Positions 12,192 through 17,301 of a DNA stretch of 64,000 nucleotides are shown here, piece by piece. The stretch covers positions 1 to 64,000 of the forward strand of contig JAFYAQ010000017.1 in assembly GCA_017540645.1 (NCBI GenBank), in the 5' to 3' direction. Source of the DNA: Oscillospiraceae bacterium. Its GTDB lineage: Bacteria > Bacillota > Clostridia > Oscillospirales > Oscillospiraceae. How positions within the stretch are numbered: the stretch's first letter is position 1; the number at the start of each line of letters is the position of its first letter. Made by a program: the position numbers and the translations under genes. The notes below the pieces were generated by a model, which ran no database searches, was not told the DNA's origin, and worked only from the letters and a program-made list of their open reading frames with translations.

Positions 12192-12317
12192 CCTCGCAGA
12201 GTTTGCGCCCGCGGGCGCAAAAATACAGGATCATTTTCGCCGGCGGCATGTACGTCGGCGAAAATTCATATCCGGGCGCAAACGTGCGAGTAAAACGAGT
12301 GCGCTGCAGCGCCCCGC
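12192..12317. repeat. Structured intergenic repeat, copy 1
   Basis: Shares with 17091-17217 a 21-base identical start, a conserved hairpin with an invariant 13-base loop, and a conserved tail. Helices seen: 12193-12210 with 12274-12290 (outer), 12202-12210 with 12213-12221 (local alternative), 12233-12242 with 12256-12265 (loop 12243-12255), and 12274-12279 with 12309-12314. The strand that matters, if it is transcribed, cannot be decided. It lies between two converging genes. Confidence 0.8.
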
Positions 12318-12327
12318 GCTCTCCCAT

Positions 12328-12360
12328 CCCATGAGAACCCGGCGAAGCGATTCTCATGGG
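12328..12360 (-). terminator. Hairpin overlapping the 3' end of spmB
   Basis: A perfect 10-bp inverted repeat (12328-12337 with 12351-12360) around a 13-base loop. It includes the last two spmB codons and its TGA. No T-run follows, so it may be an mRNA-stabilising structure rather than a true terminator. Confidence 0.5.
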
Positions 12361-12875
12361 AAGAACAGCCGCACGCTCCAGGCAGCGGAGAGAAAGCCCA
12401 CCAGATCGGCGCACAGGGCGGCGGCGACCACCCGGCGGGACACCCCCGCGCCCGCCCCGCCGAAATAGACGCTGATCACATAAAAGGTGGTCTCCGTGGA
12501 GCCCAGCATCACCGCCGCCGTCCGCCCCACCGGGGAATCCGGCCCGAAGCGGGCCATCAGCTCGATCCCCAGGGCCAGGGCGGCGCTGCCGCTCAGGGGC
12601 CGGATCAGCAGCAGCGGCACGGTTTCCGGCGGGACACCGACCCGGGAGAAAAGAGGGGAGAGGAGATCCGCCGCGGCCTCCAGCGCCCCGGAGGCGCGGA
12701 GCATGTACACCGCCGGCAGCAGGGCCGCCAGGGAGGTCAGCACCCGCCCCAGCACCGGCAGGGCGTCCGCGGCGCCCCGGGTGAAGGCGGCATACACGTC
12801 TGTTTTCTTCCCCAGCCCCCAGAGCCCGGCCAGGGTCAGCAGCAGGGCCGGCAGCAGGGCGAGGACCGCCTTCAC
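12354..12875 (-). CDS. spmB: Spore maturation protein B
   Basis: SpmB acts with SpmA in spore core dehydration. The 173-aa membrane protein starts at a GTG overlapping the spmA stop (GTGA), which implies translational coupling; the frame is open 20 codons further upstream inside spmA, but that part has no family character. Typical segments are GSAALALGIELM and GSTETTFYVISVYFG. Both proteins belong to the nucleoside-recognition (Gate) domain family. Expression in the forespore or mother cell cannot be judged from sequence. Confidence 0.9.
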   Translation of the reverse strand: MKAVLALLPALLLTLAGLWGLGKKTDVYAAFTRGAADALPVLGRVLTSLAALLPAVYMLRASGALEAAADLLSPLFSRVGVPPETVPLLLIRPLSGSAALALGIELMARFGPDSPVGRTAAVMLGSTETTFYVISVYFGGAGAGVSRRVVAAALCADLVGFLSAAWSVRLFFP

Positions 12876-17015: not shown

Positions 17016-17031
17016 AGCCTCATCATAAAAC

Positions 17032-17069
17032 AAAATCGCTGTCCATGCAAGCGCACAGACAGCGATTTT
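17032..17069. repeat. Hairpin repeat A (terminator-like)
   Basis: A perfect 12-bp stem (AAAATCGCTGTC / GACAGCGATTTT) with a 14-base loop. It differs from 17264-17301 at a single loop base. The T-run at both ends makes it terminator-like on either strand. Confidence 0.85.
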
Positions 17070-17090: not shown

Positions 17091-17217
17091 CCTCGCAGAG
17101 TTTGCGCCCGCCGGCACAAATCCGCCCGGATCGTTTTCTCCGGCGGCATGTACGTCGGAGAAAACACTTTGCGGTCCGCAAATGTGCGAGCGTAAGCGAG
17201 TGCGCTGCCGCGGACCG
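17091..17217. repeat. Structured intergenic repeat, copy 2
   Basis: Aligns to 12192-12317 over its full length. The main hairpin (17133-17142 with 17156-17165) keeps the identical 13-base loop while two base pairs changed together. A second helix, 17172-17179 with 17210-17217, corresponds to 12274-12279 with 12309-12314, with two more compensated pairs. It lies between the ferredoxin and trmN6 genes. Confidence 0.8.
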
Positions 17218-17252: not shown

Positions 17253-17263
17253 GAAGCCTAAAC

Positions 17264-17301
17264 AAAATCGCTGTCCATGCAAGCGCACGGACAGCGATTT
17301 T
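17264..17301. repeat. Hairpin repeat B (terminator-like, 13 bases after ferredoxin)
   Basis: Same 12-bp stem and nearly the same loop as 17032-17069, 232 bases away in direct orientation. It is the first structure downstream of the ferredoxin gene and likely its terminator. Confidence 0.85.

What the first reader, a model, noticed from the sequence alone, without database searches (positions are those of the whole stretch)
12192..12317. Structured intergenic repeat with compensatory base changes and an invariant 13-base loop
The sequence at 12192-12317 aligns to 17091-17217. Both have a hairpin with an identical loop GCGGCATGTACGT. Outside the loop the stem changes in pairs: A-T became G-C and G-C became T-A between copies. 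The helix 12274-12279/12309-12314 corresponds to 17172-17179/17210-17217, where two more pairs change together (G-C to C-G, G-C to T-A). In copy 1 the segment 12202-12210 can pair either locally (12213-12221) or distally (12274-12282), as a switch might. Covariation suggests selection on structure, so this may be an undescribed RNA element or structured mobile repeat. I know of no named family that it matches.
Basis: seen in the sequence. Interest (0 to 1): 0.75.

Follow-up and report, generated by a model that had tools for sequence, protein, structure and literature searches.

The report
Terminator-jumping mini-transposon with conserved hairpins
The repeat is a short mobile DNA element, common in gut bacteria of the Oscillospiraceae, that jumps into the hairpins ending genes and either doubles or replaces them, probably carried by an IS1182-type transposase; its matching stem changes are real but look more like paired DNA palindromes than proof of a new RNA.

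Summary
The two copies are real, fold, and change in matching pairs. They belong to a large family: 13 strong copies in this 2.34 Mb genome, and hits in 107 of 200 genomes of its family but only 2 of 398 in a phylum draw, both of that family. The element is ~180-230 bp with four hairpins (P1-P4) and no gene. It is mobile. About a fifth of copies sit between two copies of a whole host terminator hairpin, at a constant offset. Both window insertions have related genomes with an empty site holding one terminator: copy 2 (17091) sits between duplicated terminators, copy 1 (12192) has taken the terminator's place. In the same bacterial family I found IS1182-family insertion sequences with the same terminal repeats (CAGnnTGTCRAAaAA); two complete ones are flanked by hairpin copies. 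I therefore read the repeat as a MITE-like element mobilised by hairpin-targeting IS1182-type transposases. Covariation is very strong, but G·T and A·C mismatches are equally common in P1/P2 (22:21, one fixed G·T pair aside; tRNA control 15:0). Stem maintenance therefore looks like DNA palindromes, and an RNA role is unproven. The '13-base loop' is not invariant and the 'switch' is not conserved.

The parts
12193..12201 (+). Copy 1: conserved 5' motif CTCGCAGAG
12202..12221 (+). Copy 1: hairpin P1
12234..12264 (+). Copy 1: hairpin P2 with loop GCGGCATGTACGT
12274..12314 (+).
12327..12361 (+). Copy 1: hairpin P4, 3' end of the element; no other terminator hairpin seen between the two genes
12192..12362 (+). 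Copy 1: whole element, lying where related genomes G121 and G122 have a single terminator hairpin (hairpin replaced)
17027..17069 (.). Copy 2: left copy of the duplicated host terminator hairpin
17092..17100 (+). Copy 2: conserved 5' motif CTCGCAGAG
17101..17120 (+). Copy 2: hairpin P1 (one mismatch)
17133..17165 (+). Copy 2: hairpin P2
17172..17217 (+). Copy 2: hairpin P3
17226..17254 (+). Copy 2: hairpin P4 (TCAAAAAAGCGGC/GCCGCTTTTTTGA), overlaps the 3' terminal inverted repeat
17260..17301 (.). Copy 2: right copy of the duplicated host terminator hairpin

Best explanation
The repeat is a short non-autonomous transposable element (MITE-like, ~180-230 bp, no gene) of the Oscillospiraceae. Its ends are the inverted repeats CAGnnTGTCRAAAAAG...CTTTTTYGACAnnCTG, the 3' one lying in hairpin P4. 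A DDE transposase of the IS1182 family, supplied in trans, recognises these ends and inserts the element at the feet of a DNA hairpin, usually a gene's intrinsic terminator. [quoted passage not shown] If they join at the 3' feet, the hairpin is lost and replaced (window copy 1). SHOWN by sequence: the family, the hairpin duplications, empty orthologous sites, shared ends with IS1182-type ISs, and the same hairpin duplication around those ISs. INFERRED: that this transposase moves the element, the strand chemistry, and that P1-P3 stay paired because palindromes are favoured or corrected at DNA level.
For: Many dispersed copies: 13 strong in the own genome; 107/200 family genomes, many at or above the 22 scored. 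Flanking direct repeats: 24 of ~110 score at least 14 against a control maximum of 12.5; most are whole hairpins, with the left copy ending ~16-18 nt before CTCG and the right one starting near +184-187. In 1.2 Mb of loci nearly all exact hairpin direct repeats are spaced 207-242 bp and enclose an element. Empty sites: copy 1, G121 and G122; copy 2, G124 and G126, with G121 compatible and G084 carrying a separate insertion of a diverged copy at the same place. Partner ISs: P0001 passes NCBIfam IS1182 (388.6 bits, cut-off 270) and has PF13751, PF05598 and PF01609. Their ends CAGnnTGTCRAA match the element; L248 and L249 are complete and flanked on both sides by the same 32/31-nt hairpin; 10 of 12 IS ends abut a hairpin scoring at least 9 (null 95% = 6, 99% = 11). 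In genome G066, element L246 and IS L248 share the 16-mer CAGACTGTCGAAAAAC. Published precedent: IS1272 of the IS1182 family targets hairpins and terminators, and duplication of a whole stem-loop is pathway b of the proposed model (PMC5678879, PMC4923244).
Against: The own genome has no PF13751 transposase. The IS subgroup occurs in only 12 of 200 family genomes, and its association with the element is not significant (9 of 12 positive, p 0.11). About 80% of copies show no hairpin duplication, and many lack a clear 5' inverted repeat. The internal hairpins P1-P3 were not seen in the ISs, so the element is not a simple internal deletion, and a MITE does not need them. IS L248 and element L132 have flanking hairpins with inverted loops, which plain target duplication does not give.
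Confidence: 0.82

Rival explanations
1. A functional structured RNA (regulator or sRNA) encoded by the + strand, which happens to lie in a mobile element or is spread by it.
For: Very strong covariation in two helices. A G·U pair near the P2 loop is kept in 53 of 65 copies while its neighbours change in pairs. Wobbles lean to G·T in P4 (16 to 2 cells, 9 to 2 distinct contexts). The core is kept while the ends decay.
Against: Outside the fixed pair, G·T and A·C are equal in P1/P2 (22:21), while tRNA stems give 15:0. No orientation bias to genes. The loop is not invariant. No Rfam match. Presence is patchy even within a genus.
Confidence: 0.12
2. Stems look covarying mainly because DNA replication corrects imperfect palindromes by template switching; there is no selection on the structure at all. 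(This concerns the cause of the covariation and is compatible with the element being mobile.)
For: Strand-symmetric mismatches. Some flanking hairpins have inverted loops (L248, L132), which template switching can make. The process is published (PMC8794818, abstract only).
Against: The fixed G·T pair and the conserved loop-side motif in many copies would be erased by such correction. The CTCGCAGAG motif and the linkers are kept across genera.
Confidence: 0.3
3. A retro-element or group IIC-intron-like RNA inserted at terminators by target-primed reverse transcription.
For: Terminator targeting and variable-length target duplications would fit.
Against: Inverted repeats at both ends are shared with DDE-transposase ISs that show the same hairpin duplication. 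Replacement of the hairpin at copy 1 is the published IS1272 outcome. No reverse transcriptase was sought here.
Confidence: 0.04

Closest known systems
IS1272 / TnSha1 (IS1182 family, staphylococci)
   Same: IS1182-family transposase, inverted repeats, insertion at hairpins and terminators without sequence specificity; the hairpin-replacing outcome matches window copy 1 (PMC5678879, PMC4923244).
   Different: There the hairpin is removed and no duplication was seen; here whole-hairpin duplication is common. IS1272 carries its transposase; this element carries none and has three extra conserved hairpins.
Bacterial MITEs
   Same: Short, multicopy, no gene, ends shared with an autonomous IS in the same bacterial family, target duplications.
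   Different: The interior is not derived from the IS, holds conserved covarying palindromes, and the target duplication is a whole terminator hairpin of variable length.
REP/REPIN-type palindromic repeats
   Same: Dispersed intergenic palindromes with a conserved motif beside the hairpin.
   Different: Here there are inverted repeats of an IS1182 kind and target duplications; no RAYT link was found or searched for.

Membership tests
IS1182 family (the partner ISs L151, L248, L249) | Transposase scores above the curated IS1182 model | tested here: met
   P0001 (from L151): NF033551 388.6 bits, cut-off 270
IS1182 family (the partner ISs L151, L248, L249) | Terminal inverted repeats | tested here: met
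   CAGnnTGTCRAA at both ends of L151, L248, L249
IS1182 family (the partner ISs L151, L248, L249) | Insertion at palindromes (some members) | tested here: met
   10 of 12 ends abut a hairpin
MITE (the repeat itself) | Short, no transposase gene | tested here: met
   No autonomous copy among 120 loci out to 7 kb; length ~180-230 bp
MITE (the repeat itself) | Inverted repeats shared with an autonomous IS | tested here: met
   Element L246 and IS L248 of one genome share CAGACTGTCGAAAAAC; the full 5' end pattern occurs in 29 of 200 genomes; many other copies lack a clear 5' repeat
MITE (the repeat itself) | Target site duplication | tested here: met
   About a fifth of copies, 24 of ~110
MITE (the repeat itself) | Moved in trans by the IS transposase | not testable with these tools
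   Needs a transposition assay; co-occurrence is not significant
Any Rfam RNA family | Match at or above gathering score | tested here: not met
   best sub-threshold hit 15.5 bits against 70
Functional RNA | Wobble excess (G·U over A·C) in stems | tested here: inconclusive
   22:21 in P1/P2 outside one fixed G·U column; P4 16:2 cells; tRNA control 15:0
REP/RAYT | Associated Y1 transposase gene | not tested
   not searched

The most novel reading that the evidence does not exclude
A hairpin-targeting DDE transposon system in which the passenger carries a conserved strand-specific structured core that works as an RNA or as folded DNA in transposition, so that both target and cargo are read by structure rather than sequence.
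Probability: 0.15. Interest if true: 0.75.

Novelty: new variant of a known kind. Interest (0 to 1): 0.52.

Why it matters
It supplies many natural examples of whole-hairpin duplication, the outcome proposed as 'pathway b' but not seen for IS1272, alongside hairpin replacement by the same element family. That makes structure-guided target choice by IS1182-type transposases directly testable. It also shows a mobile element that edits gene ends in a major gut bacterial family, and warns that strong covariation of a repeat is not by itself proof of an RNA.

Tried and rejected
(1) Known RNA family: none in Rfam. (2) Cis-regulatory leader or terminator cassette: orientation to neighbouring genes is random. 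(3) A general strand bias of wobbles: first counts suggested one, but in P2 they were driven by a single fixed G·T column; without it the P1/P2 ratio is 22:21. (4) Any PF13751 gene as partner: no co-occurrence (18/17/45/40, p 1.0); only the subgroup with CAGnnTGTCRAA ends fits, and its association is weak (p 0.11). (5) An autonomous copy with P1-P4 ends: none within 7 kb. (8) A report of the core 15-mers in open papers: none.

Full report
WHAT WAS CLAIMED.

The copies align at 80% identity (E 1.2e-22), share the loop, and fold far better than shuffles. Sixty-five copies from this genome and from public genomes give 98.2% paired cells, 17 of 21 pairs with double changes, and a covariation score of 0.50 against at most 0.17 for slid partners. 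A second set found by the covariance model gives the same picture (97.8%, 20 of 20 pairs).

ANATOMY. The element is larger than described: a conserved CTCGCAGAG; hairpin P1; a linker; hairpin P2 with a loop that varies in the family; a linker; a long hairpin P3 with variable insertions; and hairpin P4 at the 3' end. In many copies the 5' end reads CAGnnTGTCRAAAAAG and the 3' arm of P4 reads CTTTTTYGACAnnCTG, so the ends form inverted repeats. There is no orientation preference relative to neighbouring genes (26/23/23/23).

DISTRIBUTION. Own genome: 13 strong copies. Bacterial family: 107 of 200 genomes, many with 22 or more copies, patchy even within a genus. Phylum draw: 2 of 398, both of the same family. 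One genome of another family of the order also has hits.

IT MOVES, INTO TERMINATOR HAIRPINS. Comparing left and right flanks, 24 of about 110 copies have direct repeats scoring at least 14 (control maximum 12.5). Nearly all are whole terminator hairpins, at a constant offset from the element. Scanning 1.2 Mb for exact hairpin direct repeats 150-6000 bp apart gives almost only spacings of 207-242 bp, each enclosing an element. In the window, copy 2 lies between two copies of AAACAAAATCGCTGTCCATGCAAGCGCAC(A/G)GACAGCGATTTT (17027-17069, 17260-17301). Genomes G124 and G126 have a single hairpin at this place and no element; G121 also lacks the element and has one strong hairpin there; G084 has an independent insertion of a diverged copy flanked by its own terminator copies. 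Copy 1 has no other terminator: G121 and G122 have stop codon, one terminator hairpin and the next gene, where this genome has the element. So the two window copies show two outcomes, duplication and replacement. The relatives are 75-82% identical across the flanking gene, so loss of a hairpin after insertion cannot be fully excluded for copy 1.

THE LIKELY MOTOR. The IS1182 family (IS1272) is published to target hairpins and terminators and to replace them; a model in which joining at the 5' feet duplicates the whole stem-loop was proposed as pathway b (PMC5678879, PMC4923244). Among PF13751 genes of the bacterial family, a subgroup has the element's ends. L151, L248 and L249 are intact ISs with CAGnnTGTCRAA inverted repeats; L248 and L249 are flanked on both sides by the same 32- and 31-nt hairpin; 10 of 12 IS ends examined abut a hairpin scoring at least 9 (null 95% = 6, 99% = 11). 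The L151 protein passes NCBI's IS1182 model and carries PF13751, PF05598 and PF01609. In genome G066 an element (L246) and the intact IS (L248) share 16 terminal bases. Other IS1182-type ISs in the family have different ends (GGGGCTGTTGACAAA, GGACCTGTTGACAAA). Weak points: the own genome lacks such a gene, and co-occurrence of the subgroup with the element is only a trend (9 of 12, p 0.11).

RNA OR DNA STRUCTURE? An RNA stem under selection tolerates G·U far more than A·C (general knowledge). In P1 and P2 the counts are 22 G·T to 21 A·C once a single fixed G·T pair is set aside, while tRNA stems of the same loci give 15 to 0 (only 14 tRNAs). This points to strand-symmetric upkeep of palindromes: template-switch correction (PMC8794818, of which only the abstract was seen) or recognition of extruded DNA. 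Against a purely mutational cause stand the fixed G·T pair and the conserved linkers; P4 leans to G·T (16 to 2 cells). An RNA role is therefore open, not shown.

VERDICT. A real, widespread, mobile, non-autonomous element; a new variant of a known kind (IS1182-type hairpin-targeting transposition plus MITE-like passengers). The RNA interpretation is not established.

Noticed in passing
L026:1619ff, L084:4446, L093:5322, L108:5854, L132:4653: A second ~46-bp palindromic mini-repeat (GGTGAATTGCCCCGAAGGGGCAAGAGAG core) sits in the P2 loop of five element copies from different contigs, in both orientations; all five occurrences in 1.2 Mb are there.
   Followed up: partly
L107:496-757: A different structured interior with the same inverted repeats and the same terminator-hairpin duplication, so the class is wider than this one family.
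   Followed up: no
L248:951-2540; L132:4600-4960: Flanking hairpin copies with inverted loops (AAGATT/AATCTT; GTCA/TGAC), not expected from simple duplication.
   Followed up: no
L113:7407-7970: A stretch with what looks by eye like two small ORFs lies between direct repeats of a terminator hairpin 536 bp apart; not searched against families.
   Followed up: no
genome G208 (and G036), e.g. L336, L337: Ten copies in G208 and five in G036 start with the identical 26-mer CAGATTGTCAAAAAAGCATCGCAGAT, which suggests a recent burst.
   Followed up: no
L046:4809-5032: Tandem triplication of the P1-P2 part of the element.
   Followed up: no
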